DNA of 42,619 nt from Akkermansiaceae bacterium. Lineage in GTDB: Bacteria > Verrucomicrobiota > Verrucomicrobiia > Verrucomicrobiales > Akkermansiaceae. Shown piece after piece: positions 5,424-29,208 of this stretch. A program made the position numbers and the translations under genes. The notes beneath the pieces are model-generated. The model did no database searches. It was given only the letters and a program-made list of their open reading frames with translations, and was not told the origin of the DNA. The DNA is taken from positions 1 through 42,619 of the forward strand of contig CAIKHZ010000224.1 of the NCBI GenBank assembly GCA_903827375.1, written 5' to 3'. Position 1 is the stretch's first letter; every line of letters starts with the position of its first letter.

Positions 5424-8400
5424 GGCCTGGTCACACGCAAGCGAACAAACCGGCGGTCACCCGAACCCATCGGAATGCTAGCCGTGATCCGTTCTGAGAT
5501 GCCTTGATCCACCGTCGCCTGAACCACCACCCCGCTAGAACTCCATGTTCCTTCAGCCAGTGAGTCACTCCATTCAAGGGCAAATTCAATGCCGTCCGCC
5601 ACGGCGTTCTTGGCGCGTGCATAGCTGAAGGTAAAGCCACCACCACCACCATCATTGCCAATGCTCACCGGCTGCGTGCCCGGTGTGCCTGGGGTGCCAA
5701 GCGATATGGCAGTGGCGAACTTGATTAGATTCGGGATGCCGTCGTTAGCTGGCGTAGCGAGGTCAGCGCCGTCACCAGTGTTGTTAGCGCTGCCATAATG
5801 AGCCATTCTCCATGCTTCAAGATGGCTCAGACAGTTGCCATTCAAAAGTATATTGAATGGATTGTTTGCTGAGTCGCTGCTCGCGATATGAATCGCAGCA
5901 CCGCGCGGGCCAATCGCTTGAGGGGTGAAAGTGACCACCATATCGCTAGTGGCGGCGGCGCTCACCGAGGTGGCGGGTGCCGTGGAGATGGCGAAATCAG
6001 CGGCATTGGGACCCGACGGGTCGATGGTGACGCTTAGGCCTGTTAGCGTTTGATTGCCGGAGTTGCGGATGGTGAATGTGAGGGGATTCGACGTGTTCAC
6101 TTCCGTATTGCCGAAGTTCACGCTGGCACCATTGCTTAGGGAACCGTTTTGTTCCACTGCGATCACCGCGGTCCCTGACGTATAGGTTACGGCGGTGTCT
6201 GCATAAGGAGGCGCGGGTTCAACCGTGCCATTGCTGTCAGTGGCCACACTGTAGAACTCATAATGTCCGTCGCCGTTAGGATAACTGAAGGTCGCGTTCC
6301 ACGGTGACCCACTCACCGTCTGGAACGGACTCCAAGCCGTCCACGTCGCATTGTCTGCCGAGTATCGATAAAAGAACCGGACCTGTGTCACAGTAACCGG
6401 CGTGCCCGCGAACGGCGTGGTGACCTGCAAATATGGATGATTGGAGGCGTATTCCTTTGAGTCGAACCCATAACTTGGTGATGTTGCGTCGGTGGAATTC
6501 TCGGTAACCGGTTTTACTAACAGCGATACCAACTTGTTGCCGGCGAGTTTGCTCTGGGCAAAGGCGGTGGCATCCCAACTGTAATAGAGGTTAGTCACGC
6601 CGGAGACGAGCGTCTGTGTGTCCAGCACGCTGCCAAATGTCGGCTGATTGTTCCAAGTGATGGCTGTTTCGCCCCATGTGTCGTCATTTCCACCGCGCAC
6701 TTCGGCATCAAGTGACGCGCCAGTGGCCTTCCAACAGGACATGTTCAGTGTGGCGCTGGTAATCGTGGACCCGGCCGGCAGGCTGGAGAGGTCAAAGCGC
6801 AACCATGCACGCTCATTTTGGAATGATCCTGCAGCGGCGCTTTGAATGTATAGGTTCGTGGTGTTGAAGTTGCTTCCGGGGACACCGCTTTCCACCTGTA
6901 CATCGGCCACTGGCTCCAACGAGTAAAATGTTTGATTCGATCCCGGGGCGGCGTTGGCGGTAGCGGTGAGTGCCAGTGGGCTGCTTGTTTGGTTGGGTGC
7001 CACTGAGTTGACCTGCGAGTCTGGCGGGAAATTCGGCGTGGAGGCAGGCGTTACGTTATCAGCGCGGAAGCGCAAGCCATAGCTCTCGCTGGTGGGAACG
7101 CCAGTGATAACGAGATAGTCGCCGGTGTTGCCGGGGAGGGTCTTGGTGGCATAGCCGGTGGCGTCTTGGATGGTGATGGTCGTACCGCTCTTGTCCGTCA
7201 CGGAACTTGTGCCGCTCTTTCTTGCCACAAACTTCACATAGTGGTTTTTGTATGTCTGATTCCAAAATCCGCTGATTGCGCTGAAGTACGTCGGCTGAGC
7301 CAGACTCGGATCGTGACCGACGATTTTGAATTCCACGCCATCCGACTGGACGCCTTCCTGATCGACGAACTCAGGGTTGCCCCCATAGAACGCCCCTTTG
7401 CCCCAGACTTCGACGATGTCACCTGGTTTAAGAGCCCCGCTGCGGAACCCCAGATAGCTGCGATACCATTCATTCTCGGATAGGCGGTTGGCGCGATTGA
7501 TGGAACCATCCGCGTTGACAAGATCCGTAGGCACCTGCTGCGTGCCGCGGTGGGCCAGTGTCTCGGGTGTGGCGCTGAGAAAACGGATGAATCCGTCCTT
7601 GAATGCCTCGCGTGAGTCATTGTCATTCATCATTGTCACCACCACACGATAGCCACCGGAAAACTCAGTGTTGAGAGAGTAGCGCGACGGGCCTGCCTGA
7701 TAGGGGTTGGCTTGGTCGAAAGTCGCCGTGTAATCCATAAGAGCTGTGCGGGCGAGATAAGTCGATGTCTGCGGAGCCGGGTCAATGGTCGCGAAATTCG
7801 ACGCGTCATGCAAATACATGTAGTTGTTGATCGCCACCTTGTAAGTGTGGCCGAGATCGATCGGGCTGCCGTTGATAGAAATTGCTGTTGGCACGCCGTC
7901 GTAGGCCGTCACAAGCCAGCCAGCGGACATGGCGGCGTCACAATTATGATCCTTGAAAAAATTCCAAATTTGCTGGCCGGTCATGTTCACGACGTAGATG
8001 GTGTCGTCCGCCCATGGGAAGGTTTCATAGATATGGGTGTATTTCACCGGACCAGCGATAATGTCGGATCGGACGCCGCCGCCGGCTTCGAGCGAGAGGT
8101 CGCAACGGCCGAACAACGATGTCGCTTTCCGTTGCACGGCGTCGCAAATCCAGTTGCCAGCCGTGTTGTTGCCACTCCACGGGTATTCATCTGCAGACCA
8201 CCATTTCATGTAGTTGTCCAACAATAGGTTGTCAGATGTGTAGCCAACAACCTGGTCCACTCCGTAAGGTGGATTCGTGGCGGCATACTGGTCCTTGCGT
8301 GTTTGAAGGTAACTCGCAATATCAGAATCAGGCGTGATGTCGCTATTGCGCAGCGGATAGTAGTTCGAACTGACGAGTCTTCCGAGGCCATTGATCTTGA

Positions 8401-11553: not shown

Positions 11554-14500
11554 TCAGGGAATGACAACCTTGAGCCGCATCACGCGGCGCGGGTGCCCGG
11601 CGTCTGCCGGAACCAAGTCCCCAATCTTGACCGTCACCGGCCCGCTGCCGGAAGTAACAACGTGGGATGCTCCGCCACCGAGCCACTGCCAGTCGTCGGC
11701 ACCTGTCTTCGATGCCACGTCCGTCCATGTCGCCAGATCGTCGGACGCCTGCACGATATAGGTGATGTCCGTTGGATTCGGGCTGGGCAGCGAGAAGCTT
11801 ATGGCCAAGCGGTCACTGAGCAATGGATTCGCATCGCCCCTGAGCGCCGTTGGCAGCGCGGCCGCTCCAGAAGCCACAGTGGGATTGAGGCCAAGCGCGT
11901 ATTCCAGCAAATTTACTATACCATCGTGGTCGAAGTCACCTGTATTGGCTGTGTCGCCCGTGTCAGCAGACGTCCCGAAGTTCGCCAGGCGCCAAGCCTC
12001 AAGCGGGCTCGGCAGCACGGTGATGGTGAACGTCGAACTTTGCACACTGCCGAAGCTATCCGAATAGGCGTAGGTGATGCTGTGCACGCCAGACGCAACC
12101 GCCGAAGGGTCAAACACCCCACCGGTCACGCCCGGGCCGGAGAAGCTGCCGCCCGCCGGGGAAGCACCGGAAGCGCTCACAAGATCCATTGTCGCTCCGT
12201 GGCTCTGTGCGGTCAGACCGGCGCTGGCCACCAGATTGAAATAGGGCTTCAGGACAAGGGCGAACTCGCTGACGACTGCCGGCGTGCGTGCTGTGACGGA
12301 CGCGGAATCGGCATCAAGTTGGGCCTTGTTGTATGGTGCGATGCCCCAGGTTTTGACATTCAGTTCCTGTGTTACAGCGTCGATGGTGAACTCGGTCCAG
12401 CCGTAGCTGTTGCTAGCTGTGTAGAGACCACCGATCAGATGGCACATCGGCAGCGGGTTCGTGGCGAGGGCAATCTGATTGTAACCGAGGGAGGCAAGGC
12501 TTGGATTGATGATATTGTTCATTACCAAGGCTTCCTTGCCAGGTGCGCTCAGCGACTGATAGTAAGCGTCCGTGCCGGGTGCCGCGAGCCCTGCAGCTAT
12601 GGCGAGATCAACGATGGTAGGCCCGAACGGTTTGTCATAGGCGATAGGACCCGTGATCACCTCGATGGAGTTGGTCTGAATCTGCGGACCGAACGGCGCA
12701 AGCTGATAGGACAAGCGATTGATCACTGTGCCATGAAAATCAGCGGTGACAAAGACAACATTGGAGATGTGTTGATCGTCGATGAACTTCAACAGTTCAC
12801 TGCGCTCGGCGGCATAGCCTTCATAGCGGTCTTCGGCACCCAGCGGCCCGAAGTTTTGGATCGGCTCCGGGACACAGACAAACTTCCAAACGATACCGGC
12901 TGCTTGCGCGGCGAGCAGGTCGGCTTTGAAGTCGGCCTTCTGCTGCGCCCCGAGCAGCGTGCGTCCCGGGGTGAACGAAGTGGCAAGGAAGGTGCCGACC
13001 TCGAGCTGGTTTGTGATATCTGCAACCGGTGTCAACGGCGCACTTCTGAATGAGCGCGTGTCGAGCACAAAAGTGGCTGCCGTCTTGCCCTGTGTTGAGT
13101 AGCGATAGAGTTTGGTGTGGTTGGCGGTAATAGGATCGCCGGTCGCCCCGTAACTCTGATCGAGGAGCGGATGATACTCGCTAAATGCTTGAACGCCGTT
13201 GGCGAAGGTCTCCGTCTGATTGATATAGGTGCCGGTATCGGAACTGAAGCGTGCATCACTGGTGCGGAGGGCACCACCTGAGAAATTGTTCGTTACTTCG
13301 TGGTCATCGATCACCGCGAAGACGCCCGTGGAAGCCCGCAGATCGCCGAGGGTGTTGAGGCCGTAGCGGGGGACATACACTTCATTGAACTTGGCCCGAA
13401 AATCTCCGAGCGTGCGGGCCTGTGCAGCAGGCACGTCAGGCGAAGATACGTCAGCGTATATGTTGTCGCCGAACAACAAGAAGAAATCGAGGTTTTTGCC
13501 AGCGGCATTTTTCACCGACGGATAGGGTGCCAGATCACCGCGCTGGTCGCCGCCGATGCCGAAGTGAAGACCACCGAGGGCGCCAGCTGCTGCCGACGTT
13601 CTGAAGGTGCCGCTCGCGTTGTTGTTCAAGTTCTTAGCCCGGTAGTAATACTGCGTGCCAGCCGTTAGACCGGTGATGGATGACTTAACTGGCAAGGTCG
13701 TATCTGTGATCGCAAGCGTCGTGCTGGTCACGCCAAAGGCGAAAGTGGCACTGGTGGAATAGTCGAGAGTGATGGGGCCATTACTAAGACTGTGAGCCCA
13801 CAGAACCGCGCTGGTGCTGGTGACGTCTCCGGCGGCTACGGTGAGGACTGCGGGTTTGACAAAGCCCGGTGAGCCAATTTCTCTGGCATCGCCCACGGCA
13901 GCGAAGGCACCGTTCATACCGATGACACTCGGGGTCGCAATGATGGGTAGTGGCAGTGTCCTGCCACCTAAACCGGCCTTGTTATCGAAGGTGGCGAAAG
14001 GAGCCGTTGCAGGCGAGACACCAAAGCCGACCCCAGTAACGATGGCTCCGCTGGCGTCGAAGAGAACGACTTCATCAGCGGCGCTGCTGAGGCCGACGCC
14101 GCTGCCAGAGTAACCGCCGATTTGCAGACTGGCGGGAGGATTGCTGCCAAACCAAGTGCTGCGGAACGCTGCGGCCTTAGTCGCGAGGTCGGCAGGATTC
14201 GTCGTGGCGATTTCCATGAAGATCACAGCCTCACCAGGAGCGATGCTGGTGACTCCGAACATCGGGACTGCGGAGGCGATGGCGTGTGAGTTATCATCCA
14301 TCTTCCAACCGGTGATGTTCGCGGTCGTGGTGCCGATGTTAGTCACTTCGAACCAATCCGCTCCGATACCGTTGCTATTGCCTGCGGTGCTGGACCACGG
14401 AGCGACTTCGGAGATGATGATGCTGCCTGGTACCACGGCGGCCGCGACGGCCAGCGTGAAGGTGGTGCTGGCATCTGGAGTGGTGCCGACGGTTACGTCA

Positions 14501-17500
14501 TCGACGGTCACCGTCACACTGTAGCTGGGCTTGTTAGCATTGCTTAGTGATGTGCCGGACTTGAGATACAACGAGTTGCCGACGACGGTGAAGAACGCAG
14601 CGTCGGTGCCGCTTACACCAAGCGTGTTAGTGCCTTGGCCATCATCGGTGACGGTGATATCTGCGACGCGGATGTTGGAGGCCGTGTTGGCAGCTTCGGA
14701 AATCGTCGCCAGCGTGTTGGTCAGGGCGATGGAGGTCGCTGCCATATTTAGTACATCGTTGTCCAAGATGGTGATGGTTGCCGTGCCCGGGGTGCCCACA
14801 TCGTAGCTTCCGGTATCCGTGATGCTAAGGGTCAATGTCTCGGGGCCTTCGCCGAGCAGGTCGTCCACCGGGGTAATGGTGATATCCACAAATACCTGAC
14901 CAACGGCAAACGTCACCGATCCGGTGAGCGTTGGCGTATAATCCGGAGGGGTGGCTTGTCCTACTCCAGTGGCGATGGTATAAATCGCGGTGAGCGTGGA
15001 TGCTGTGCTGCCGGTTCGGCTGATGCGGAAAGTGCCAGGATCGGGGCCGGTTTCGGACGCGCTGGCGTCGATGGCGACGATGCTCACAAGCGGGGTGGCT
15101 CCTGCGCCAACGGTGCCAGGAGAGCCGATTTCATTAGGGTCATTGGCGGCAACGAAGGCACCGCTAACTCCCACAACACTTCGATTGGAGATGGTGGCGT
15201 TGTTCAAACCCGTCGAGTTGTCGAAGCTGTAGAATTTGCCAGCAGTGCCCGTGTTAGCACCAAAGTCCACGTGCGCCTGCAAGTTTCCGCCGATGTCGAA
15301 GAGGTTCACTGCGTCACCCGCCGTGCTGAGGCCGACACCGGAACCAGAGTAACCGCAGAAGTGAAGGTTGGCGGGAGGATTGTTGCCGAACCAAAGCGTC
15401 TTGAACGCAGCTGCTTTGAGATCGAGTTCCGCTTGGGAGTCGATGCCGGTCTCGATAAAGATGACGGACTCACCCGGATCGATGCTGCTGGCACCAAAGA
15501 CGGGCAGCGAGACCGAGTAGGAGTTGGAATTGTCATCCACGGTCCAGCCTGTGAGGTCCACGGCGGCAATGCCGTAGTTGGTCACTTCGAACCAGTCGGC
15601 GGCGAGCGCTGCGCCGCTATTGCTGCTAGACCAAGGAGCCACCTCAGTGATGACGAGGTTCGGGGTGGCACCTGCGCCGGTAACGACGGTCAGATTGTAT
15701 GTCGTGCTGGCATCAGGGCTGGTGCCGACTGTGGCATCATCTACATTGACGTTGACCGTGTAGGTGGGCTTTGTCGTCGCATTGAGCGATGAGCCGGCTT
15801 TGAGGAACAAGGCCGTACCAATGATCTTGAACGAGGCGGCGTCTGCGCCGGATACGGACAAGGTGTTAGGACCGATGCCATCATCGACGACGAGGATGTC
15901 AGCGACGCGAATGTCGTTAGCAACGCTCGGAAGCTCTGGCAGTGAACTAACGACGGAGGTCAGCGTCACAGCGGTGGGCGGAAGGTTTGCCTCAGTGGAG
16001 AGCGCATAAACCCAGAGTTGTGGATGATCGAAATCGCCACCGCCATCTTCGTTCGTAACGTAGAGGTTGCCGCTGCGGTCCATGCAAACGCCTTCCATCG
16101 TCATGGCAGGCACACTCAAAGGACTGCCTGGGTCAGCAACGATGGTCAGACGGCTGTAAACGTTGCCGTTGCGGTCGCAGTTGATGATTTGACCCGACTC
16201 CTGGCTGATGACGAGGAGATGGCTGGCTTCCGGTGTGCCGGTGAGCGCGGGCAGATTCGACAAGGCGAAGATGTCGGAGAGATCGAGCGTGTTGAGCAGA
16301 TCGGGGTTGAAGAGATCCGTCGAATTAGCGGTGGTGGGCGAGCCATTCGTCGCGGTGAGCGTGTTCCAGTCAATGTTGGTTTGGAAGATGCCCTTGGGCT
16401 GCTTTTCCTTCACGAGAATGAAGCCGCCGGTGAGCGGGTCCCAAGTCACACCTTCGAGGCCGATGTTTCCGATGGTGGTGCCGAGCTTCATGGTCTTGGT
16501 CGCAGAGCGTTGAAGCGTGGTGTTTGGCACATAGGTGAACTTCACCAGGGTGCGATCGCGTTCCTCGGTCATCACGAACTCGCCATTTCCTATGTAAGCG
16601 AGGGCTTCAGTGTCATCGAACTCGGTGCCTGCACGGCGCGCCGGATTGAGAGCAAGGGTCATCGAGTCGATGAGCTCCCCGGTCTTCGTCACTTGCACAA
16701 CAGAAGTGCCGCCATCGCCGGTTAGGAAGAGCGTGTCCGTGTCCCAGTTATAGGTCACGTTCGATGCTTCCTGGCAAAGCAAGCTGCCGGTCGGCGGCGT
16801 GGTGCGCGTCGGCTCCGGCAAATCATAGCGACCCACGCGAACGTAGCGAGAGAGGTCCACTGTGGTGATTGCGCTGTTCACGGTGATGTTACCAGCCATA
16901 TATGTGAGCGAATAGTTCGTTGCGGTGAAGGTGCCACCCGTCGCAGCGGATGCGACCACCGAGCCTGGATAGTTGCCAGCAGGATCTGCCGCTGCCGCGC
17001 CGGAACCGTAAGTGATCGTGACCGAGCCTATCGTTTCGCTGTTCGCCAAACCGCTACTCGTGAACGCCGTCGAACCCGCACCACCCGTGAGCGTGGCATT
17101 GAAATTTTTTGTCACGTTGTCCGCAGTGACGATTAATGCCTTGGCGGAGACCGTGTTGCCACTTGCTGCGGTGGTGATGCTTGCTGTCGTCGCTCCGCTC
17201 GCGAGACCAATGCTCAAACCATTGTAGCTGCCGGAGACAGGAGCCGTCGCCGAGAGTCGAATCGAAAGCGTGCCGCCCGCGGCTGCGAAGCTTGCCGATG
17301 CACCAAACGTCGCGCCATCGCTGGCGACTTCAAAACCCACAGGTGCCGTGGCGATGATGCTGGCAGGCAAGTTGCTGCCCGTGATCGGGAAGGTCTGCGG
17401 GGTGGATGCCGTGCCGTAAGTCGTCGTGAACGCAGTGGCAGTGGCTGCGCCCGTGATCGAGGTCGGGGAAAGCGGTGCGAAGGCAATCCCACGGAAGGCG

Positions 17501-18573
17501 GTGTTAGCTGCCGCTGTGGCCAGCAATGTGGGAACGGAGGTGAGGGATCCGCTGTAACCCGAGCTATCCACTAGGCTGGCAATCTCACCGCCTCCAACAG
17601 CTGCTGAGCCACCTTTGCGTGTGACATATAGCGTGACAGTTGAGCCCGAAACCGTGCCCGTGATCCCCCGATAGGCGTCGGTACCCGTGCCAACAGTTCC
17701 CTTGGCAGTCCAGGTTGTTCCATCAAATGAAAACTTCTGAATGCCCGCAGCATCATCACATACATACAGCGTGTCCACGCCAGCGACCGATGGACTGAGG
17801 TCAGCGAAAAAGAATGAATACGGACTGCCGGTGATCGCAAACCCCGGCAGATTGATCATCGTCTGGCCTGCGGTAGTAGGCAGTCCGACGCCAACGCTGG
17901 CAAGCCGGAGTGCCGAGCCCGAGCTGTCGGAACTGTAGAGTTGATTGTCAAATATATTCACTTGCCGGTTATTGACCAGCGTCGTGCTGAGCTGGGTCGA
18001 GGTGCTCGCTCCAAGGGTGGCGTAACGAATGCCACCAGCAGCGCCCGCAAACCAGAAGGCGCTACCGTCCACTGATACCGCACTGCGTCCATTGTTGCCT
18101 GTGGAGGCGTCGCTGAGCCCAGTTGTGGTGTCAATGTTGCCTGAACTGTCCACCCGGCCTATCACCCGGTTGACCGTGGCAGAAGCCGTGCTTGTTAGGC
18201 TAGTCGTCGGTATCGCCGCGTCATAACCGGTTACAATCAGATAGCGGCCGTCGATAGATCGAGACAACATGCCCTCGGAGGTGGCGGTACCACTGGCAAT
18301 CAGCCGCTTATTGGAACCGCTGACCACTGTGGGCATGGCAATCGACTGCACCAAAGTACCAGTCGGTGAATATTCGTCGATAAAGACCGGGCTGCCGGTG
18401 GACACCAGTGAACCGCTGCCGCTGCCAGCCCTGTACACCGCCAGGTTGCCTGGGGTGAACGGTGCAGCGTTGGCACTTGGAAACAGGAACGAAGTGCCGC
18501 AGGCGACGAGCGCCAGCAAGCGTGAAGAGAGCGACTTGGCTCTGCTGATAGAAGTCAGATTGGTTGGATTCAT
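11554..18573 (-). CDS. Giant secreted PhoD-like phosphatase with propellers and duplicated cadherin-like/lamin-tail modules
   Basis: 2339 residues. The signal peptide ends near ANA/AP (36). About 40-370 is a beta-propeller-like region, 478-568 an MBG-type repeat, and 570-860 an SdiA-regulated/phytase-like propeller (DDTEALAYIGNGEFVMTEERD, EGVCMDRSGNLYVTNEDGG). Then follow a cadherin-like plus lamin-tail module (860-1155), a Calx-beta domain (1160-1275) and a second cadherin-like plus lamin-tail module (1280-1571). The catalytic part is PhoD-like: a beta domain at 1573-1660 and the metallophosphatase at 1660-2100, with GGDQRGD near 1676, LFGDNIYAD near 1703, VIDDHEVTNN near 1755 and FVTADFHG near 1948. 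An Ig-like domain and the LEAWRLANFG/DHDGIVNLLEYALGLNP module close the protein. PhoD enzymes are phosphodiesterases or alkaline phosphatases acting outside the cytoplasm. The 5' leader contains a candidate Pho box at 18795. Confidence 0.87.
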   Translation of the reverse strand: MNPTNLTSISRAKSLSSRLLALVACGTSFLFPSANAAPFTPGNLAVYRAGSGSGSLVSTGSPVFIDEYSPTGTLVQSIAMPTVVSGSNKRLIASGTATSEGMLSRSIDGRYLIVTGYDAAIPTTSLTSTASATVNRVIGRVDSSGNIDTTTGLSDASTGNNGRSAVSVDGSAFWFAGAAGGIRYATLGASTSTQLSTTLVNNRQVNIFDNQLYSSDSSGSALRLASVGVGLPTTAGQTMINLPGFAITGSPYSFFFADLSPSVAGVDTLYVCDDAAGIQKFSFDGTTWTAKGTVGTGTDAYRGITGTVSGSTVTLYVTRKGGSAAVGGGEIASLVDSSGYSGSLTSVPTLLATAAANTAFRGIAFAPLSPTSITGAATATAFTTTYGTASTPQTFPITGSNLPASIIATAPVGFEVASDGATFGASASFAAAGGTLSIRLSATAPVSGSYNGLSIGLASGATTASITTAASGNTVSAKALIVTADNVTKNFNATLTGGAGSTAFTSSGLANSETIGSVTITYGSGAAAADPAGNYPGSVVASAATGGTFTATNYSLTYMAGNITVNSAITTVDLSRYVRVGRYDLPEPTRTTPPTGSLLCQEASNVTYNWDTDTLFLTGDGGTSVVQVTKTGELIDSMTLALNPARRAGTEFDDTEALAYIGNGEFVMTEERDRTLVKFTYVPNTTLQRSATKTMKLGTTIGNIGLEGVTWDPLTGGFILVKEKQPKGIFQTNIDWNTLTATNGSPTTANSTDLFNPDLLNTLDLSDIFALSNLPALTGTPEASHLLVISQESGQIINCDRNGNVYSRLTIVADPGSPLSVPAMTMEGVCMDRSGNLYVTNEDGGGDFDHPQLWVYALSTEANLPPTAVTLTSVVSSLPELPSVANDIRVADILVVDDGIGPNTLSVSGADAASFKIIGTALFLKAGSSLNATTKPTYTVNVNVDDATVGTSPDASTTYNLTVVTGAGATPNLVITEVAPWSSSNSGAALAADWFEVTNYGIAAVDLTGWTVDDNSNSYSVSLPVFGASSIDPGESVIFIETGIDSQAELDLKAAAFKTLWFGNNPPANLHFCGYSGSGVGLSTAGDAVNLFDIGGNLQAHVDFGANTGTAGKFYSFDNSTGLNNATISNRSVVGVSGAFVAANDPNEIGSPGTVGAGATPLVSIVAIDASASETGPDPGTFRISRTGSTASTLTAIYTIATGVGQATPPDYTPTLTGSVTFAVGQVFVDITITPVDDLLGEGPETLTLSITDTGSYDVGTPGTATITILDNDVLNMAATSIALTNTLATISEAANTASNIRVADITVTDDGQGTNTLGVSGTDAAFFTVVGNSLYLKSGTSLSNANKPSYSVTVTVDDVTVGTTPDASTTFTLAVAAAVVPGSIIISEVAPWSSTAGNSNGIGADWFEVTNIGTTTANITGWKMDDNSHAIASAVPMFGVTSIAPGEAVIFMEIATTNPADLATKAAAFRSTWFGSNPPASLQIGGYSGSGVGLSSAADEVVLFDASGAIVTGVGFGVSPATAPFATFDNKAGLGGRTLPLPIIATPSVIGMNGAFAAVGDAREIGSPGFVKPAVLTVAAGDVTSTSAVLWAHSLSNGPITLDYSTSATFAFGVTSTTLAITDTTLPVKSSITGLTAGTQYYYRAKNLNNNASGTFRTSAAAGALGGLHFGIGGDQRGDLAPYPSVKNAAGKNLDFFLLFGDNIYADVSSPDVPAAQARTLGDFRAKFNEVYVPRYGLNTLGDLRASTGVFAVIDDHEVTNNFSGGALRTSDARFSSDTGTYINQTETFANGVQAFSEYHPLLDQSYGATGDPITANHTKLYRYSTQGKTAATFVLDTRSFRSAPLTPVADITNQLEVGTFLATSFTPGRTLLGAQQKADFKADLLAAQAAGIVWKFVCVPEPIQNFGPLGAEDRYEGYAAERSELLKFIDDQHISNVVFVTADFHGTVINRLSYQLAPFGPQIQTNSIEVITGPIAYDKPFGPTIVDLAIAAGLAAPGTDAYYQSLSAPGKEALVMNNIINPSLASLGYNQIALATNPLPMCHLIGGLYTASNSYGWTEFTIDAVTQELNVKTWGIAPYNKAQLDADSASVTARTPAVVSEFALVLKPYFNLVASAGLTAQSHGATMDLVSASGASPAGGSFSGPGVTGGVFDPSAVASGVHSITYAYSDSFGSVQSSTFTITVLPSPLEAWRLANFGTSADTGDTANTGDFDHDGIVNLLEYALGLNPTVASGAAALPTALRGDANPLLSDRLAISFSLPSPNPTDITYIVQASDDLATWTDVASKTGADDWQWLGGGASHVVTSGSGPVTVKIGDLVPADAGHPRRVMRLKVVIP

Positions 18574-21597: not shown

Positions 21598-22281
21598 TCA
21601 AGGCAGAGCGACACCGGTGATCACTCGTTCAGAATAGGTGATTGCAACTCTCGATGGGTTCGAAAACTGAAGGACCACCGGGAGTGATGAGCCGGGCTAC
21701 AGAGTTGCAGCGTTGGCGACTGCCACCACATAGGGACTGCCCGTCGGCGATGTGTTGGTGGTTGTGCCGCCAGCACCGGCAAGCGTGGCGTTAGAACTCA
21801 GGTTGTCGAGCGCCAGATATACCGGCCCGGTAATGACCGATGATGAGTCATTGGTAAGAGTCATCTGTTGCACGAATTTACCTGCACGCCGGTCAAAGGT
21901 GAAGCCACCCCGCGAAACACTGACGCGGCCCGGAATGAACGCAATACCTCGCAACACTTCAGCATACTGTGCCGTCTTGATGACAGTCAACACCTCGCCG
22001 GCGGCCTGCGCCGCACTCGTGAAGGCGAGGTTGTCAGTGACCTCGACCAGTTGATTGGGATCTGCCCCTACATCGACCAACGAGCTGATCGTCGAAGTCA
22101 CCGCGAAGATGGTGACCGTGCCGTCGCCGTTTACTCGACCAGAGATATTGCGCAAACCGACCGCGCTGGGTGTCACCGAATGGGTGCCATCAGTAACGGT
22201 ATAAGGTGTTCCACCGCTCGTGTTATTTGCAAGCGTGCTGCCTGTTAGCGCACCGTTCGTTAGTGTATAGCGGAGGTATGT
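21598..22281 (-). pseudogene. Broken secreted protein: 5' truncated and interrupted by an in-frame TAG
   Basis: The frame carries the end of a propeller-like region (TLTNGALTGSTL...VLRGIAFIP), similar in plan to residues 290-370 of the 2339-residue protein (which reads AFRGIAFAP). It continues into a beta domain (GGFTFDRRAGKFVQQMTLTN...GPVYLALDNLS) clearly related to the C terminus of the 1301-residue phosphatase fusion. A TAG at 21697-21699 interrupts it. After that stop the same frame goes on (PGSSLPVVLQFSNPSR...ERVITGVALP) to a TGA at 21598 and matches the last 30 residues of the fusion protein (APGASVSAVLQFTRPA...ARVITATVNP). No signal peptide precedes it; the ATG at 22386 gives an unrelated basic N terminus and lies upstream of a Pho-box-like site. 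It is probably the remnant of another secreted phosphate-related protein. Confidence 0.8.
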
Positions 22282-22344
22282 ACGCACCGATAACCGTTCA
22301 CGCAATGAAAGTAACTTCCTGCCCGTCGTTCGCAACAGATCGCA

Positions 22345-22362
22345 TGCAACAATATTGACACA
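22345..22362 (-). promoter_or_regulatory. Pho-box-like direct repeat G
   Basis: On the minus strand TGTGTCA-ATAT-TGTTGCA, 11-base period. It stands 64 bases before the recognisable part of the broken secreted-protein gene, suggesting the intact ancestor belonged to the same regulon. Confidence 0.5.
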
Positions 22363-22444
22363 ATGTTTACCGGTTTCCCCGATCACGTTTGCAAATCACT
22401 TGTAGATGCACTGCTTTATCAAGGAGTTTACGTGGATGCCAAAG

Positions 22445-22516: not shown

Positions 22517-23173
22517 TTAGGCAAGGCGGCGACGGCGGATCACGGTTGCACCGCAGGCCAGAAGAGCGCAAAGGGCTGTCGTGGGCTCAGGCACCGCCGT
22601 AACACTGACACTGGCAAAATCCCCGGTACCGGATGCAAGATTGAGTTGCCCGATACTCAGTGGGTTGGTGGTATCAAAATTCGCCATAAGCAATGTGTTA
22701 CCCAGACCATTGGTCGGAATGTTAGCCAGTGTGCCATCTAGAATGGCTATCGAGAAGCTCTCCGGTGTGAGACCCGCTCCGACCACCTGGGTCAGAGACA
22801 GATCAAATGAAAGAGAAGTCCCGGCACCGAATGCTTGATAGAACTCGTTGAACTGGCTGCTGTCGATCATGGTGACCACTGAAGCGATGTCACCAGTGGC
22901 TCCGCCCAACCCATTGGCCAAGCCAATGGCTCCGCTGCCACCGCCGAATGTGAAATTACTAACGACGGCTGTGTTGTTGTTGAGGGTGTCACCAGCGTTC
23001 AATTGGAGGTCCAACGAATAGGGTGCGGAGCCCAAATTGGCCGGCAACGTGAACGCCGTGGTGTCTATGGAGATATGATAGACCGCGGCCTGGCTGGCTG
23101 CGGAGGCGAGCAGGAGACCGGCACATGCCAGCAAGCTAACGGATCTAATTGATTTTGATGCGATGATTTTCAT
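22517..23173 (-). CDS. PEP-CTERM sorting-signal protein
   Basis: 218 residues. A signal peptide (1-29, ASQA/AV) precedes a beta-rich domain (YHISIDTTAFTLPANLG...). The C terminus has the full PEP-CTERM sorting signal: VPEPTT, a hydrophobic stretch, then RRRR. Such proteins are processed by exosortase and end up on the cell surface or in extracellular matrix. The overall plan is that of a small PEP-CTERM family with an N-terminal YHISIDT segment; its role is unknown. It sits between the dual phosphatase gene and the broken gene, flanked by terminators on both sides. Its promoter must lie within the 43 bases between its start and the upstream terminator, or overlap that stem (an AATATAAA element lies about 20 bases upstream). 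No Pho-box-like site is seen at this gene. Confidence 0.85.
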   Translation of the reverse strand: MKIIASKSIRSVSLLACAGLLLASAASQAAVYHISIDTTAFTLPANLGSAPYSLDLQLNAGDTLNNNTAVVSNFTFGGGSGAIGLANGLGGATGDIASVVTMIDSSQFNEFYQAFGAGTSLSFDLSLTQVVGAGLTPESFSIAILDGTLANIPTNGLGNTLLMANFDTTNPLSIGQLNLASGTGDFASVSVTAVPEPTTALCALLACGATVIRRRRLA

Positions 23174-23265: not shown

Positions 23266-26200
23266 TTAGGGATTAACTGTTGCGGTGATGACGCGGGCAC
23301 CGTAGCTTATTCCGCCGTTGGCCGGCCGGGTGAACTGGAGCACCGCACTGACTGAGGCACCCGGGGCCAAATCGGCACCGGTCAGCGATATATACGGGCT
23401 GCCCAACGGAACGCCATTGGCAGTGGTGCCGCTGGCATTTGATAGTGTGGTTGTGGCAGACAGGTTATCGAAGGCGACGGCAATGGGGCCAACCAGAGGA
23501 GTGCCACCGTTGTTTGTCACCGTGATCTGTTGCACCATTTTGCCACTACGCCGGTCATAGGTGAAGCCGCTGCGGGTCACCTGTGTGGTTGTGAAGATAC
23601 CGGCCAGGCTGTTAACACCCGCATCAGTGGAGTTCAACGACGGCAAGCCAAAGCGCTGTTCGATCGTCTTAAGCACCGAGGACGTGTCATACTCCGTGTG
23701 ATCGACATAGGCCTGTTTGGCCAGCGGCGAAATCACGATGGCAGGCACCCGAACGCCCGGTCCCCAGATGTCGCGCTGCGGAGGTGTGACGTGATCCCAA
23801 CGACCACCGTGCTCGTCATAGGTGACGATGATGGCGGTGTGCGCCCAGAGTGCCGGATTGGCTTGGACTTTTGCGACGAGGTCGGCGACGTGCTGCTGCC
23901 CCTGTTGGAGCGACGCGTAGCCGGGGTGTTCATTGTCCGGGCCGAGGAACTTCACAAACGATACCGCCGGAAGCGTGCTGCTGGCGATGTCGGTATAGAG
24001 AACCGTTTCGTCCTGCAAGTGAGCGCTGGCATAAGGGTTGCGGCCGTTAGGCTGGGATGCGTCGAACGGCTTGGATTTCTCGAAGAATGCGAACGCCTGA
24101 TGATGCCATTGGAACAGGTTGGGAGCGGCTGGTGCACCCTGCGTGATAGGATTGTTAGGCGAACTTTGCAACGCTTGCTCCCAACCGCCGGAATACCACT
24201 TCCACGAAACACTGGCGGCATCGAGCAGGTCGCCGATGTTGATGTGATAGTCGGGACCGGCCGGGTTCGTGTTATTTTGGGATGGCAGCAAGTTGAGTGA
24301 ACTCAGGCTCGACCCGTGAGACTGGAGGTTGGCGGAGAAGATGGTATTTACCGCGTAGTGCTTGTCGAAGGTGTTGCCGATATTGCCTGCAAACACCTGG
24401 GCGTTCGCTGCACCGAGCGTGACAGGCGTATTGGCGACTCCGTTGAGCGTCACGCTGATTTGGTCACCAGCCACCGGGGTGATGTTGCCATCTCGGACGA
24501 TCTTGCCGGCACTGGTGCCACTTGAGTTTAGCACGAACACGCCATTGCCGTCGAGATAGGCAATGTTGCCATTGTTGCCTGTGGGCATATTGGTATATAC
24601 CGGAGGTGCCGCTGCGATGAGGAACTGGTGGTTGAGGAATGAGCCACCAAACGCCGAGTGGAAGAAATTGTCGCACATTGTGTACTGCTGTGCGAGCAAA
24701 CCTTCCGGCAGGTTTGAGGCATCGTAATAACTCATGACCAGGCCTGGATTATCGCTCCAGCTCATGAAGCCGCTGTTATTGCCAGCCTCGGCATCCACGC
24801 CCGGTGCCGTCTGCACGACACCATAGGTCTGGAATTGTTCCTGCCAATAGCGATGGAAAATATCTCCGGTGGTCGCGGTTGGGGCAATATAACTCCCGGC
24901 ATTGAAGGGCAGCAGCGTATTGAGACCTGCCGGGAATGTGGTGTCGATGGCACCGCCAGCATTGAATGGCTGTGGCGGCGTGTTCTGCAACGGCGAGGTC
25001 TTCGACGGATTGTTGTAGTTATTGGTTCCCAACTCGTTGGCGAGAAGATTGCCGTTGAGCCGGTCAATTTGATTGAGGGAGGCCGCGCTGGCACTGGCCC
25101 TGCCGTTGGCACCGGGGAAACTGCCGTAGAGACCGTCAAAGCTCCAGTTTTCCTGATAGACAACGATGATATGGTCGATGCCGGCGAGGGGATTGGCGGC
25201 ATCGACCTGGAAGCTGAAGATCTCCCGTGCCGGGTTGCTAACGACATTGTATTCCGAGGCACTGTTTTGGGCCGTGGAGTTGATACCGATGCTCTTCACT
25301 GTCAGGGTTCTACCATCGGCGCTGACGTCCAGGAGGTTATAGTTGAACGTGTCAGGGCTGTAGAAATCCACGGGTTGCGGATTGGTCGCTGCGTTGGGAT
25401 CGCCTTCGCGAACGACATTGTGCAGGCCGGGGTACCCCTGCAGACCGATCGAGTTCACTCCGGCGGCGACCTGGGCGTTGGCGATCATGTCGGTAGCACC
25501 TTTGATATGTGCAAAGTCATGGTTGAGGAACAGATCGGGGCCGGTAGCACCGAGAGGGCCGCAAACAATTTCGAAGCAATAAGGGACTTTCTTATAGTCG
25601 GCCTGCGAGAACCCGGGGGTTCCGGGTCCGGTCCGACCGCTCGGCGAGTAGAGCAATTCGTTAATCCGGTTCTGATGGTCATCGGTCGATAGAAACACGA
25701 CGTTGGTGATCTGGTGCTCGGCGATGAATTTGAGCAAGGCGTTGCGCTCGGCGCGGTAGCCGCCGACCCATGCCTTGCCGCCGTCCGAAGCCACCGGGCC
25801 GTAAGCGGCGTTGCCGCTGTAGGAAGCCATGGCGGCGGCTGTGACGCCACTCAATGCACCACCGATCGGGCCGATTTGATCGATGGGGTTAGAGACGGCG
25901 ATGAACTTCCAGGGCGTGCCGGCATTCTGTGCGGCAAGCAGCGTCTGTTGGAGCCAAGCCAACTGCGTCGCACCAAGATAGCTGCGGTTTGGATTGTCCG
26001 CGCGGCTGCCAGTGTCGTCGGCGCTGCCGTCGGCGGTCTTGATGCGGATATCACGATACGTGCGGTCGTCCACATTGATGAAGACGGCGTTCTTTCCCCA
26101 GGATTGGGCAAAGTACAATTGTTTGGTACCGTGTGATCGCGGGTCTGAAGGGGAGTTGACACTGCCGCGTTCGGAGATTGGCTGATAGTTCAAATATGCC

Positions 26201-27171
26201 TGCTGGAGTGTTTGAAAGCCTGCGGAGCGGTTCATATAGTCGCTGGCCGAGGAGTTGGCATCATTGATATTGCCGACATTGCCAGTCCCATTGGCGCGGG
26301 CATCGACGCCGCGTCCAGTGGGCATATCGTTTCCTGCTGCACCACCCACCGAGCCACCGGCAGGCGCGCCGCCGTTGATATACTGGCGGTTGCCAAGTTC
26401 GTGGTTGTCTAGCAGCGTGTAGTTGCCCTGCCCGGCGTAAAAGTCTTTCAGGCATGACTGCCCACCACTATTTACCGGAAGAAATTGCTCGCGATACTTT
26501 TTCGAGTAGTCGGCAAACAACTGCGCTTGCGTTGCAAAGGTGGTCCCGGCCGCCGGCACCCCGTTTAGACTTGCAGAAGAGCCCGAGAGCGTCACCGATG
26601 GCGAATTCAAATACGAAGTAGCAGCATTGCCAGCCACGTTGCTCGCATTCTCATAGATTGTGTCACCGAGGTTCACATAGAAGTCGAGCGCTTGGCCTGG
26701 CAGTGTGCTGGCCAATGCATATGGACGCATCAGACCGTCAAGATCACCGCTGAATCCGAAGTGAACCGGCACCGCAGCACCTGCGGCCGGTGCGGTCTTG
26801 AATCTACCAACGTTGCTGGTGCTGGCACCTGACTGGAATTGATAATAGTACACGGTGGATGGTTGCAGCCCGCTCATGCTGAATTTGAGCGTGTAGTCGT
26901 TGGAGGCAGCTGTCGTGCCGCTGGTGGTGGCGACGATGTTAGTCATCGTGTTGTCGGTGGCCAGCGACAGTGTCACCGTGGCAGTGACCGGCGACGCGTC
27001 ATCGGCGGCACGAGTCCAAACGGTCGCGCTGTCACTCGTTGCGTCACCAGCGGCGACGCCGGTGAAGCCGAATGCGGCATGCGCCATGGGCGTGCATAGT
27101 CCGGTGATACTTGCAAGGCTGGCATTGAAGAGGGCAGAGCGGAGCCAGTGATATTTGTGGTGTTGTTTCAT
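23266..27171 (-). CDS. Secreted fusion of a PhoD-like phosphatase and a phospholipase C/acid-phosphatase domain
   Basis: 1301 residues. The signal peptide ends near AHA/AF (32). Residues 35-135 form the beta domain of PhoD-like enzymes (FTGVAAGDATSDSATVWTR). The metallophosphatase follows to about 640, with NLGDTIYEN near 165, LLDNHELGN near 250 and FLSTDDHQNRIN near 495. A second, unrelated phosphatase begins at 665: the phosphoesterase family (PF04185) of phospholipase C and acid phosphatase, with IIVVYQENWSFDGLYG (usually QENHSFD), CDNFFHSAFGGSFLNHQF, TYDEHGGRWDHVTPP near 1114 and YDTSSVLKTIEQRFGLP. Residues 1195-1301 are a beta domain also found in the broken gene at 21.6-22.3 kb. Both enzymes would act outside the cytoplasm; the second may cut phospholipid head groups and leave diacylglycerol. 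A Pho-box-like site lies 166 bases upstream and btaB lies beyond it. No frameshift is visible at the junction. Confidence 0.9.
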   Translation of the reverse strand: MKQHHKYHWLRSALFNASLASITGLCTPMAHAAFGFTGVAAGDATSDSATVWTRAADDASPVTATVTLSLATDNTMTNIVATTSGTTAASNDYTLKFSMSGLQPSTVYYYQFQSGASTSNVGRFKTAPAAGAAVPVHFGFSGDLDGLMRPYALASTLPGQALDFYVNLGDTIYENASNVAGNAATSYLNSPSVTLSGSSASLNGVPAAGTTFATQAQLFADYSKKYREQFLPVNSGGQSCLKDFYAGQGNYTLLDNHELGNRQYINGGAPAGGSVGGAAGNDMPTGRGVDARANGTGNVGNINDANSSASDYMNRSAGFQTLQQAYLNYQPISERGSVNSPSDPRSHGTKQLYFAQSWGKNAVFINVDDRTYRDIRIKTADGSADDTGSRADNPNRSYLGATQLAWLQQTLLAAQNAGTPWKFIAVSNPIDQIGPIGGALSGVTAAAMASYSGNAAYGPVASDGGKAWVGGYRAERNALLKFIAEHQITNVVFLSTDDHQNRINELLYSPSGRTGPGTPGFSQADYKKVPYCFEIVCGPLGATGPDLFLNHDFAHIKGATDMIANAQVAAGVNSIGLQGYPGLHNVVREGDPNAATNPQPVDFYSPDTFNYNLLDVSADGRTLTVKSIGINSTAQNSASEYNVVSNPAREIFSFQVDAANPLAGIDHIIVVYQENWSFDGLYGSFPGANGRASASAASLNQIDRLNGNLLANELGTNNYNNPSKTSPLQNTPPQPFNAGGAIDTTFPAGLNTLLPFNAGSYIAPTATTGDIFHRYWQEQFQTYGVVQTAPGVDAEAGNNSGFMSWSDNPGLVMSYYDASNLPEGLLAQQYTMCDNFFHSAFGGSFLNHQFLIAAAPPVYTNMPTGNNGNIAYLDGNGVFVLNSSGTSAGKIVRDGNITPVAGDQISVTLNGVANTPVTLGAANAQVFAGNIGNTFDKHYAVNTIFSANLQSHGSSLSSLNLLPSQNNTNPAGPDYHINIGDLLDAASVSWKWYSGGWEQALQSSPNNPITQGAPAAPNLFQWHHQAFAFFEKSKPFDASQPNGRNPYASAHLQDETVLYTDIASSTLPAVSFVKFLGPDNEHPGYASLQQGQQHVADLVAKVQANPALWAHTAIIVTYDEHGGRWDHVTPPQRDIWGPGVRVPAIVISPLAKQAYVDHTEYDTSSVLKTIEQRFGLPSLNSTDAGVNSLAGIFTTTQVTRSGFTYDRRSGKMVQQITVTNNGGTPLVGPIAVAFDNLSATTTLSNASGTTANGVPLGSPYISLTGADLAPGASVSAVLQFTRPANGGISYGARVITATVNP

Positions 27172-27400: not shown

Positions 27401-28027
27401 TCAGCGGCATTTGCCGACGTAAAGAAGATAGCGCCACAATGTGGCATAACCCCGCTGAATCTGGCAGAGGTGGCCATCGAAATGGCGATTGAGTTCCGCC
27501 AACAGGTGTCCGTCCATGCGCACATGATTGACGCCCATCCAGCGCCGGAACCATGTCCAACGCGAATCGTGAAAGTCCACCACCGCGACGACGCCTATTG
27601 GGCTCAAGTCAGTTTTGCAAATTCGCAAGACATCGTCGAATCCCGGGTTGATCATCGAAAGTGAATAGCTGAAGATCATGATATCAAACTTGGCGTCGGT
27701 CGCAACCGGTGCATCATAAGCCCGATGCAGCAGGACCATCCTCGAGCCGTAACATTCCACTTTGGATTTGGCGCGTTCGAGCATATCCGAGGATAGGTCC
27801 AGACCGGTGATCTGCGCATGAGGGAAGCGCTCGGCCAAGGCAGCCAGATTGCGCCCGGTGCCACAGCCGATTTCAAGAATGCGAGCGGGAGAGATTACGT
27901 GATCGGAAACACGCTGGATGAGACGGGCTCTGCCGAAGAGAAATGCCCAGCGGGTTAGATCGTAGATACGGGCATGCCAACGATAATAGTCTTTGAGGGA
28001 TGCATAACTTGTGCTAGGCGTACTCAT
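27401..28027 (-). CDS. btaB: Betaine-lipid N-methyltransferase, BtaB-like
   Basis: 208 residues from the ATG at 28027. In DGTS synthesis BtaB adds three methyl groups from AdoMet to diacylglyceryl-homoserine. The AdoMet motif ILEIGCGTGRNLAALAE, DLSSDMLERAK, the loop FSYSLSMINPGF and the C-terminal segment WMGVNHVRMDGHLLAELNRHF...LWRYLLYVGK fit the BtaB family. The N-terminal DYYRWHARIYDLTRWAFLFGR is also typical. The start was chosen because its ATG overlaps the btaA TGA (ATGA, 28024-28027), implying translational coupling; an in-frame ATG at 28054 would add nine residues. It is the last gene of the betaine-lipid operon. Confidence 0.85.
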   Translation of the reverse strand: MSTPSTSYASLKDYYRWHARIYDLTRWAFLFGRARLIQRVSDHVISPARILEIGCGTGRNLAALAERFPHAQITGLDLSSDMLERAKSKVECYGSRMVLLHRAYDAPVATDAKFDIMIFSYSLSMINPGFDDVLRICKTDLSPIGVVAVVDFHDSRWTWFRRWMGVNHVRMDGHLLAELNRHFDGHLCQIQRGYATLWRYLLYVGKCR

Positions 28028-29208
28028 GGCATGATGTGAGCAAGTAGTGTGCAACCATAGGTTCCTACGCGGTCTTGTGAATGCAGTCTCGCGGCCATGA
28101 GTGGATTGAGAAGCAGGCGCCTCCGCGCAAACTCCGGGATGAAGTTGATCTCAGGGCCGGCCGAGCGCATCAGAATACAGGTTCCAGGTTCGCTGTTCGC
28201 CAAAATCAAACGCCATTCCTCGTCCAGCGCCTTGGGCTGGTTCGCGGCTAGCCAGTCCTGATGGTCCAGCAATGCATAGTGGGTATAGCGGCCGGGCTGC
28301 TCTCGCAAGAAATTCGCTATGCTTGTATTGTGGGTGGTCAGGCGGCTAACAGACGCCTGCAGTGCCGGTTGGTATCGTTCCCGAAGATAGTTGGGACAGC
28401 AGTTGCGTGTGTAGCGTCCCGTCAGATAGACCCGCCAGAAATAGTTATCTGAATAGAGGATCTTGGTAAGCACATATTCCAATTTTGATTGAAGATAACC
28501 CGTGATACCACCCTCAAATTGCGATTCAATCAAGTGGAGTTGGGATTGCGGCACGCCCAGCATGGTCATTGCCATCGGTTGGCGCAGCAACCAGGTGACC
28601 ACTCCGTTCCATAACGCCGGACGAACGGCCTCATAGAGGACGCCCTGGTCTTGAAGACTGGTGACGTGCTGAAGATCGGTCAGATAGTCGCGCACCCTGC
28701 TGCTTGTGCTCTTGAACGCCTGCAGCGCAAGCCATGCCATTTGACCGGCTGTACCCCGATAATAGAACGATGGATTCATCGGGGTGCTGCGGAAGTAATG
28801 GCTTTTCGATTCCCAATAGCGCCGCGCATCCGGGCTTAGGCTGCCGTTCATTCCCTCCAATAGGGTGGCAAATTCGGGATGGGAGCCATGACCGAAGAGT
28901 CGGAACAAGTCGTCGAAATCATCCCGAAGGATCATAGCGATTTTTAGCTCTAGCAGGGCGTTTTACCGGGGATTAACATCCACGGCATGGATCTCCGCCG
29001 GTTCATCCAGCAAATAATCCAGGGCATTGCAACCGGCGCTGGTGATCATAACTAGGCGGCTGTCGGGCTGGAGGTTGAGCATTTGCCGATCCAGGCGAGG
29101 ATCTTCCCAGCACGTGTTATAGACAAGGTTCGACCCGTGGACGCGCTTGAAGATAGCGTCGTGAATCGCGTGGGTCGAGGGGGGCGTCGATTGGGCAAAC
29201 ATCAGCAT
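28024..29208 (-). pseudogene. btaA: Betaine-lipid 3-amino-3-carboxypropyl transferase BtaA, interrupted by one in-frame TAA
   Basis: BtaA (DUF3419 family) transfers the aminocarboxypropyl group of AdoMet to diacylglycerol, the first step to DGTS. The N-terminal part has [21 protein letters not shown] and [29 protein letters not shown]. There the frame meets TAA (28963-28965), where relatives have Gln of VNPRQN, then continues without shift as NALLELKIAMILRDDFDDLFRLFGHG through 303 further intact residues (FYYRGTAGQMA, DNYFWRVYLTGRY, LLDHQDWL, RSAGPEINFIP). Reading through the stop gives 394 codons, about the family length. The ATG at 29208 follows AGGG by five bases. It is a single C-to-T-type lesion, a sequencing error or a recoded stop; the ATG at 28935 could restart the second piece. 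It is coupled to btaB by ATGA, with a Pho-box-like site at 29272-29289. Confidence 0.87.

What the first reader, a model, noticed from the sequence alone, without database searches (positions are those of the whole stretch)
23266..27171. Two unrelated phosphatase folds in one secreted polypeptide
Seen: a PhoD-like metallophosphatase (residues 35-640) is joined in one uninterrupted frame to a PF04185 phospholipase C/acid-phosphatase domain (665-1180), plus a C-terminal beta domain. Known: these families are normally separate proteins. Inference: a bifunctional enzyme could remove a head group and then work on the released phosphoester, directly upstream of a lipid-replacement operon.
Basis: partly seen in the sequence, partly recalled or inferred. 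Interest (0 to 1): 0.8.

Follow-up and report, generated by a model that had tools for sequence, protein, structure and literature searches.

The report
Fused double phosphatase with surface tail
A bacterium of the Verrucomicrobiota encodes one exported protein holding two unrelated phosphate-releasing enzyme domains, an arrangement kept by distant relatives and, in many of them, followed by a small partner gene that looks like a surface anchor.

Summary
Window 23266-27171 (-) encodes 1301 aa: signal peptide, PhoD_N + PhoD (about 35-652), PF04185 (665-1177), beta tail (1195-1301). It is no artefact: 11 of 15 loci from named genome records, including Chthoniobacter flavus Ellin428, carry both halves in one frame. 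None of 246 matching plasmid records covers 80% of it.

The PF04185 half scores best as acid phosphatase. The PhoD half has the Asp-type iron site, but 12 of 12 fusions have Asn for B. subtilis metal ligand D266 and Lys/Arg for calcium ligand N272: a variant PhoD site.

The lipid-replacement link fails: the bta genes lie 5' of the fusion, were found beside no other fusion (some contigs are short there), and btaA, the only copy, has an in-frame stop.

Unexpected: the tail travels with a PEP-CTERM gene (NF038129). The same 11 of 99 related genomes hold close copies of both, adjacent in all 11; the catalytic part varies (PhoD-PF04185, PhoD alone, distant PhoX-like; a GH5 cellulase elsewhere). I infer an exchangeable surface-display module. 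No activity or interaction was tested.

The parts
23266..27171 (-). fusion gene, 1301 aa, start to stop codon
27076..27171 (-). signal peptide (residues 1-32, ends ..PMAHA); boundary judged by eye, no predictor run
   Evidence: sequence
26794..27060 (-). PhoD_N domain (residues 38-126)
   Evidence: PF16655 79.2 bits
25216..26793 (-). PhoD catalytic region (residues 127-652); predicted metal residues D143, D170, Y173, D255, N256, N261, D497, H499; R262 stands where B. subtilis has calcium ligand N272
   Evidence: PF09423; mapping; fold
25180..25215 (-). short junction (residues 653-664); the spacing between the aligned ends (residues 652 and 661) is the same 8 residues in the 11 other fusions once the alignment starts are corrected
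23641..25179 (-). PF04185 acid-phosphatase-type domain (residues 665-1177); E674/N675, putative nucleophile S844, NEHPG 1080-1084, D1119/E1120
23269..23589 (-). C-terminal beta tail (residues 1195-1301)
22517..23173 (-). adjacent PEP-CTERM protein of family NF038129, proposed anchor partner of the beta tail
   Evidence: 98.5 bits against cut-off 65; co-occurrence

Best explanation
The gene makes an exported, probably cell-surface-displayed organic-phosphate scavenger with two independent active sites. Shown: one frame, domain identities, conservation in 12 distinct proteins, retention of most catalytic residues, constant short junction, a tail tied to an adjacent PEP-CTERM gene. Inferred: (1) Sec export; (2) the PhoD half hydrolyses phosphodiesters and some monoesters with a purple-acid-phosphatase-like Fe3+ plus one divalent ion, its second calcium site replaced by a Lys/Arg; (3) the PF04185 half removes phosphate from monoesters through Ser844; together they take diesters and monoesters to phosphate; (4) the beta tail holds the enzyme at the surface through the neighbouring PEP-CTERM protein. 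The halves act as tethered modules rather than as a channelled machine.
For: Frame and domains. 11 of 15 loci from the genome-contig scan have PhoD + PF04185 in one frame, including Chthoniobacter flavus Ellin428 (frame of 1343 aa). The motifs SGDxDG, GDTIYE, DNHELGN, TDDH, QENWxFD, GGSFLNH, NEHPG and YDEHGGRWDH are kept in 12 of 12 fusions. Fold: PhoD half to 2YEQ Z 26.5, rmsd 3.5, 427 aligned; second half to AcpA 2D1G Z 16.1, rmsd 3.5, 240 aligned (poor model). Modules exchange: in G047/L049 the PhoD core groups with L050 (support 1.000) while the PF04185 half groups with the window and L048 (1.000). Close copies of the beta tail and of the NF038129 gene occur in the same 11 of 99 genomes, adjacent in all 11. 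Two exosortase homologues in the genome.
Against: No activity, secretion or interaction was tested. Two of the seven PhoD residues whose alanine variants lost activity in B. subtilis are changed here beyond the known Cys/Asp switch (D266 to N, N272 to K/R), so the PhoD half could be weak or inactive. No Pho-box signal above shuffles in 12 of 13 upstream regions, so phosphate control is not shown. Structure models are of low confidence (pLDDT 61.6 and 52.8). 5 of 12 fusions lack the beta tail and a PEP-CTERM neighbour, so this form of display cannot be general. The window's PEP-CTERM neighbour falls just short of the general PEP-CTERM sorting model (15.8 of 16 bits). Both halves are rare in the phylum sample, this genome included: PhoD half 1 of 387, PF04185 half 5 of 387.
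Confidence: 0.6

Rival explanations
1. One reading: a phospholipid-remodelling enzyme that removes head groups and then dephosphorylates the released phosphoester, working with betaine-lipid synthesis.
For: PF04185 also contains phospholipases C, and the solved phospholipases 9gy2, 8yk5 and 9gye match the half. DUF3419 and methyltransferase genes lie next to it in this window.
Against: The acid-phosphatase model scores far above the PC-PLC model (337.5 against 121.9 bits). Bta genes were found in none of 22 other loci searched, most of them neighbourhoods of fusions or of beta-tailed proteins (several end close to the gene on that side). btaA carries an in-frame TAA and is the only copy.
Confidence: 0.1
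2. Only the PF04185 half is catalytic; the PhoD half has become a binding or structural domain after losing metal ligands.
For: D266 to N and N272 to K/R in 12 of 12 fusions, against DDHE followed by N/D at that place in 18 of the 19 other PhoD frames that fit a search pattern (26 loci scanned; the 19th, L039, is of the fusion type).
Against: The iron-side residues D143, D170, Y173 and H499, and D255, N261 and D497, are invariant in the 12. DNHE resembles the GNHE motif of two-metal purple acid phosphatases (motif recalled), and an Asp-ligand PhoD subfamily is described (PMC4223295, passages read).
Confidence: 0.2
3. On the tail: it is a carbohydrate-binding module, and the PEP-CTERM neighbour is only a co-transcribed secreted protein; there is no physical pairing.
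For: The tail region of the model aligns to CBM2-type and other beta-sandwich chains at Z about 8 (3ndy, 6qfs, 8ose), a level that can mean a common arrangement only. One carrier is a cellulase with other carbohydrate-binding modules. Weaker tail relatives in six genomes have no close NF038129 gene.
Against: Adjacency in 11 of 11 genomes among relatives, in both copies of G240, and in L051, L054, L060 and L062, with the catalytic part changing.
Confidence: 0.4
4. Assembly or annotation artefact joining two genes.
For: The window is one of 370 contigs of a draft genome.
Against: The same fusion in 11 other records including Chthoniobacter flavus Ellin428, with a constant junction.
Confidence: 0.02

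Closest known systems
Bacillus subtilis PhoD (2YEQ; PF09423)
   Same: Fold (Z 26.5), PhoD_N + catalytic layout, GDxxY, D-x-HExxN and D-x-H motifs
   Different: Asp for the Cys iron ligand, Asn for D266, Lys/Arg for calcium ligand N272; fused to another enzyme; no twin-arginine motif seen by eye in the signal peptide
TIGR03397 acid phosphatase ('acid_phos_Burk') and Francisella AcpA (2D1G; PF04185)
   Same: Whole-domain match, QEN, Ser in the nucleophile motif, acidic metal pair; the 12 plasmid records listed match this half at 37-38% identity, 9 of them annotated 'acid phosphatase' and 3 without a listed gene there
   Different: Below the TIGR03397 cut-off (337.5 of 362.75 bits); C-terminal half of a fusion
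PC-PLC (TIGR03396) and non-specific phospholipases C
   Same: Same Pfam family and metal motif
   Different: 121.9 bits against a cut-off of 580.25
PEP-CTERM / exosortase sorting (PMC1569441, passages read)
   Same: Neighbour has the PEP motif, hydrophobic stretch and basic end; exosortase homologues present
   Different: The enzyme itself has no PEP-CTERM; it would be held through a partner, which the passages read do not describe

Membership tests
PhoD (PF09423/PF16655) | profile match over curated cut-off | tested here: met
   98.8 bits (27) and 79.2 bits (30)
PhoD (PF09423/PF16655) | PhoD/purple acid phosphatase fold | tested here: met
   2yeq Z 26.5, rmsd 3.5, 427 aligned; model pLDDT 61.6, pTM 0.72
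PhoD (PF09423/PF16655) | iron-site ligand Cys (or Asp in the second subfamily), plus Asp, Tyr, His | tested here: met
   D143, D170, Y173, H499 in 12 of 12 fusions
PhoD (PF09423/PF16655) | remaining metal ligands tested by mutation in B. subtilis: D265, D266, N271, N272, D436 | tested here: not met
   D255, N256, N261, K/R262, D497: two of five changed in 12 of 12. The passages read name N272 as a calcium ligand; that D266 is one is inferred
NF058638 alkaline phosphatase PhoD equivalog | score over 1000 bits | tested here: not met
   94.7 bits
PF04185 phosphoesterase family | profile match over cut-off | tested here: met
   226.1 bits (23)
PF04185 phosphoesterase family | AcpA-type catalytic residues (E43, N44, S175, D386, D387; roles recalled) | tested here: met
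   E674, N675, S844, D1119, E1120 in the alignment to 2d1g; one conservative change, Glu for D387
TIGR03397 acid phosphatase | score over 362.75 bits | tested here: not met
   337.5 bits; C. flavus protein 329.4
TIGR03396 PC-PLC | score over 580.25 bits | tested here: not met
   121.9 bits
NF038129 PEP-CTERM protein (neighbour gene) | score over 65 bits | tested here: met
   98.5 bits; L036, L037, L051 and L060 copies 82.8-98.8 bits
PEP-CTERM sorting domain TIGR02595 (neighbour gene) | score over 16 bits | tested here: inconclusive
   15.8 bits in the window copy and 14.6 in L036, just short; 23.7 in L037 and 21.8 in L051; L060 not listed
NF038129 PEP-CTERM protein (neighbour gene) | processing by an exosortase | not testable with these tools
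   two PF09721 homologues in the genome; processing not tested

The most novel reading that the evidence does not exclude
The beta tail and the NF038129 PEP-CTERM protein form a two-gene surface-display module: an exosortase-processed anchor binds the tail of whichever hydrolase is encoded beside it (double phosphatase, PhoD, PhoX-like protein, GH5 cellulase), so that enzymes are mounted outside the cell without an anchor of their own. The double phosphatase is one cargo, with a PhoD site in which a Lys/Arg side chain stands in for a calcium ion.
Probability: 0.35. Interest if true: 0.65.

Novelty: new variant of a known kind. Interest (0 to 1): 0.5.

Why it matters
Gene surveys of phosphorus cycling commonly count PhoD, PhoX and acid phosphatases as separate genes (general knowledge); here members of a widespread phylum carry two of them as one protein, so single-family counts would misread it. 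The PhoD half gives a natural test of how many metal ions PhoD chemistry needs. If the tail and the PEP-CTERM protein pair physically, it gives a function to a PEP-CTERM family that bears only a number as its name, and a general way to display enzymes on Gram-negative surfaces.

Tried and rejected
Pho box: the best 7+4+7 site upstream (350 bases; 158 for L060) was matched or beaten by 21 to 200 of 200 shuffles in 12 of 13 upstream regions; only L052 was beaten by 0 of 200. Not used as evidence.

Calling the 630-aa beta-tailed proteins PhoX by eye: Pfam (at E up to 10) and the PDB profile search gave no support, and a comparison with two PhoX frames gave probability 23% (E 9e-4) over 96 columns. 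One intermediate, L146, is over the PhoX cut-off (44.9 of 24 bits, over part of the model) and 26-29% identical to them over 361-424 residues. I therefore say 'distant PhoX-like'.

Active-site check on the models: protein residues 256-307 (222-273 of the model) have pLDDT under 50, and the second model is poor, so the place of R262 could not be judged. Sequence mapping was used.

The pairing of tail and PEP-CTERM gene is not universal: six further genomes with weak tail matches (E 7e-7 to 8e-4: G054, G062, G068, G083, G094, G097) have no close NF038129 gene, and five with weak PEP matches (G024, G026, G063, G082, G089) have no close tail. It holds for the close tail subfamily only. In the phylum search with NF038129, 214 of 387 genomes match at E 0.001 or better, but only 2 over the cut-off, and at most 8 candidates per genome were scored. 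L056 offers only 677 bases downstream for the neighbour test.

The genome-contig scan used two peptide patterns from the PF04185 half of four fusions, so 11 of 15 is not an unbiased rate, and fusions with more distant halves could be missed. In the 387-genome phylum sample strong PF04185 matches (E 1e-30) occur in 15 genomes; the only other frame over 1000 aa there (G183, 1092 aa) was read in part, carries PF04185 near its start and showed no PhoD by eye.

The plasmid collection gave no match for the tail or the PEP-CTERM protein. Literature: searches for PhoD + PF04185 + fusion (0 papers), NF038129 (0 papers) and two wider ones listed no paper on such a fusion; other listings served other questions. 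The library is open-access PMC only. PMC6355987 and PMC6950083 were read in passages, which describe other proteins.

Notebook labels to correct: 'lake MAG' and 'Methylacidiphilaceae' were my guesses, borne out by no call; 'PhoX-like' and 'linker 9-10 residues' are put more exactly in this report; in G034 the PEP-CTERM gene follows the 632-aa protein, with the PhoD-tail gene before that.
Full report
What is there. The frame 23266-27171 on the - strand is open for 1301 codons. Pfam finds PhoD_N at 38-126, PhoD at 323-550 and PF04185 at 665-1177, all over their cut-offs. NCBIfam gives acid phosphatase TIGR03397 337.5 bits (cut-off 362.75), PC-PLC 121.9 (580.25) and PhoD equivalog 94.7 (1000). 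So the families are right, but neither half is a full member of the finer subfamilies, and the second half is acid-phosphatase-like rather than phospholipase-like.

Is it real and how widespread. In 99 genomes of the genus and order, the full-length fusion occurs in four (window; G028 96%, G047 78%, G029 63% identity); a fifth, G034, has the PhoD half and tail without PF04185. A scan of genome contigs with the PF04185 half returned 15 loci. With the window that makes 12 distinct fusions, in records titled Akkermansiaceae, Chthoniobacter flavus Ellin428, Pedosphaera, Verrucomicrobia subdivision 3 and uncultured Verrucomicrobia. The other four: L054 starts inside the domain; L061 shows no PhoD in the 3.8 kb before the domain and ends inside it; L055 has three PF04185 domains in tandem and no PhoD; L059 (Chloroflexi) is a stand-alone 524-aa frame. 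The halves are patchy: PF04185 half in 5 of 387 phylum genomes at E 1e-20, PhoD half in 1 of 387 at 1e-30, this genome counted in both. Of 246 plasmid records with a match none covers 80% of the query; the 12 listed cover only the PF04185 half, 9 of them annotated 'acid phosphatase'.

Active sites. In B. subtilis PhoD, alanine at C180, D265, N271, N272 or D436 abolished activity and at D207 or D266 drastically reduced it; the family splits into a Cys and an Asp iron-ligand subfamily (PMC4223295, passages read). The profile alignment to 2YEQ and the alignment of the fusions give C180 to D143, D207 to D170, D265 to D255, D266 to N256, N271 to N261, N272 to R262 (R in 2, K in 10 of 12) and D436 to D497. 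Of 26 loci with other PhoD or related frames, from this genome and its relatives, 19 fitted a motif pattern that demands D[D/N]HExxN: 18 have DDHE followed by N or D, and one, L039, has the fusion type. L009, the PhoD-tail protein of G034, also has the fusion type. I infer that the second calcium site is gone and a basic side chain takes its place. In the PF04185 half the AcpA residues E43, N44, S175, D386 and D387 (roles recalled) map to E674, N675, S844, D1119 and E1120.

Structure. The PhoD-half model (pLDDT 61.6, pTM 0.72) aligns best to 2yeq (Z 26.5), then to plant purple acid phosphatases (Z about 22); the second-half model is poor (52.8, 0.46) but ranks AcpA first (Z 16.1).

Evolution. 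The spacing between the aligned ends of the halves is constant, 8 residues, once alignment starts are corrected. Yet the halves do not share one history: the PhoD core of L049 is 72.6% identical to L050 and 65.2% to the window, while its PF04185 half is 89.1% identical to the window; trees place it accordingly with support 1.000 both times. Block identities put the switches near residues 113 and 690. The PhoD halves without PF04185 (L009, L039) sit beside the window among fused ones (0.970, unrooted tree), so loss is the simpler reading there. Exchange of one half speaks for modules that work side by side.

The tail and its neighbour. The last 107 residues recur on other proteins. A search of 99 genomes with the tail finds 17 genomes, of which 11 at E below 1e-15; a separate search with the neighbouring gene 22517-23173 finds 16, of which 11 at E below 1e-20. 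These are the same 11 genomes (chance 8e-15 without correction for kinship), and the genes are adjacent on the same strand in all 11, 45-119 bases between matched codons, stop codon included. The weak matches beyond the 11 do not pair up (six tail genomes, five neighbour genomes). The neighbour is NCBIfam NF038129, a PEP-CTERM protein. Outside these: L051, L054, L060 and L062 have both; the five fusions without the tail (L052, L053, L056-L058) have no PEP-CTERM neighbour (L056 has only 677 bases to look at). Searching 387 phylum genomes with NF038129 itself gives two genomes over the cut-off, this one and G240 with two copies, and both G240 copies follow a tail-bearing protein: one a GH5 cellulase with two carbohydrate-binding domains, the other without Pfam match. 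Carriers among relatives are the fusion (4 genomes), PhoD alone (G034) and proteins of about 630 aa in seven genomes that are only distantly PhoX-like. Two exosortase homologues are in the genome. I infer an exchangeable surface-display pair; binding is untested.

The lipid operon. BtaA-like and methyltransferase genes are 5' of the fusion on the same strand, not 3'. BtaA is interrupted by one TAA (mutation and assembly error cannot be told apart) and has no second copy. Blast found neither gene in 22 other loci; several of these contigs end close to the fusion on that side (for example L048 and L060), so absence is not firm everywhere.

Verdict. The fusion is real, conserved and, in the listings of my searches, undescribed. 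It is a new arrangement of known enzymes with a variant PhoD site. The most surprising part is the tail/PEP-CTERM pairing, which lies partly outside the given coordinates.

Noticed in passing
28024-29151 (-): The only DUF3419/BtaA-like gene of the genome carries one in-frame TAA; the rest of the frame is open.
   Followed up: partly
11554-18573 (-): 2339-aa protein with SdiA-regulated, two lamin-tail stretches, Calx-beta and an Asp-type PhoD domain: another phosphatase inside a giant multidomain protein.
   Followed up: partly
5420-10528 (-): 1702-aa protein joining lamin-tail, metallophosphatase with 5'-nucleotidase C-terminal domain, and CBM96.
   Followed up: no
21607-22386 (-): Second copy of the beta tail just beyond the PEP-CTERM gene, its frame broken by one TAG.
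   Followed up: no
L055:3237-7094 (+): Three PF04185 domains in tandem in one 1286-aa protein; the last is the same type as in the fusion.
   Followed up: partly
L131:3335-6587 (+): GH5 cellulase with CBM_X2, CBM46 and the beta tail, followed directly by an NF038129 PEP-CTERM gene.
   Followed up: partly
L039:1895-9289 (+): In G029 a second PhoD of the DNHE/R type lies inside a 2465-aa frame that shares several stretches, the C-terminus among them, with the window's 2339-aa protein.
   Followed up: partly
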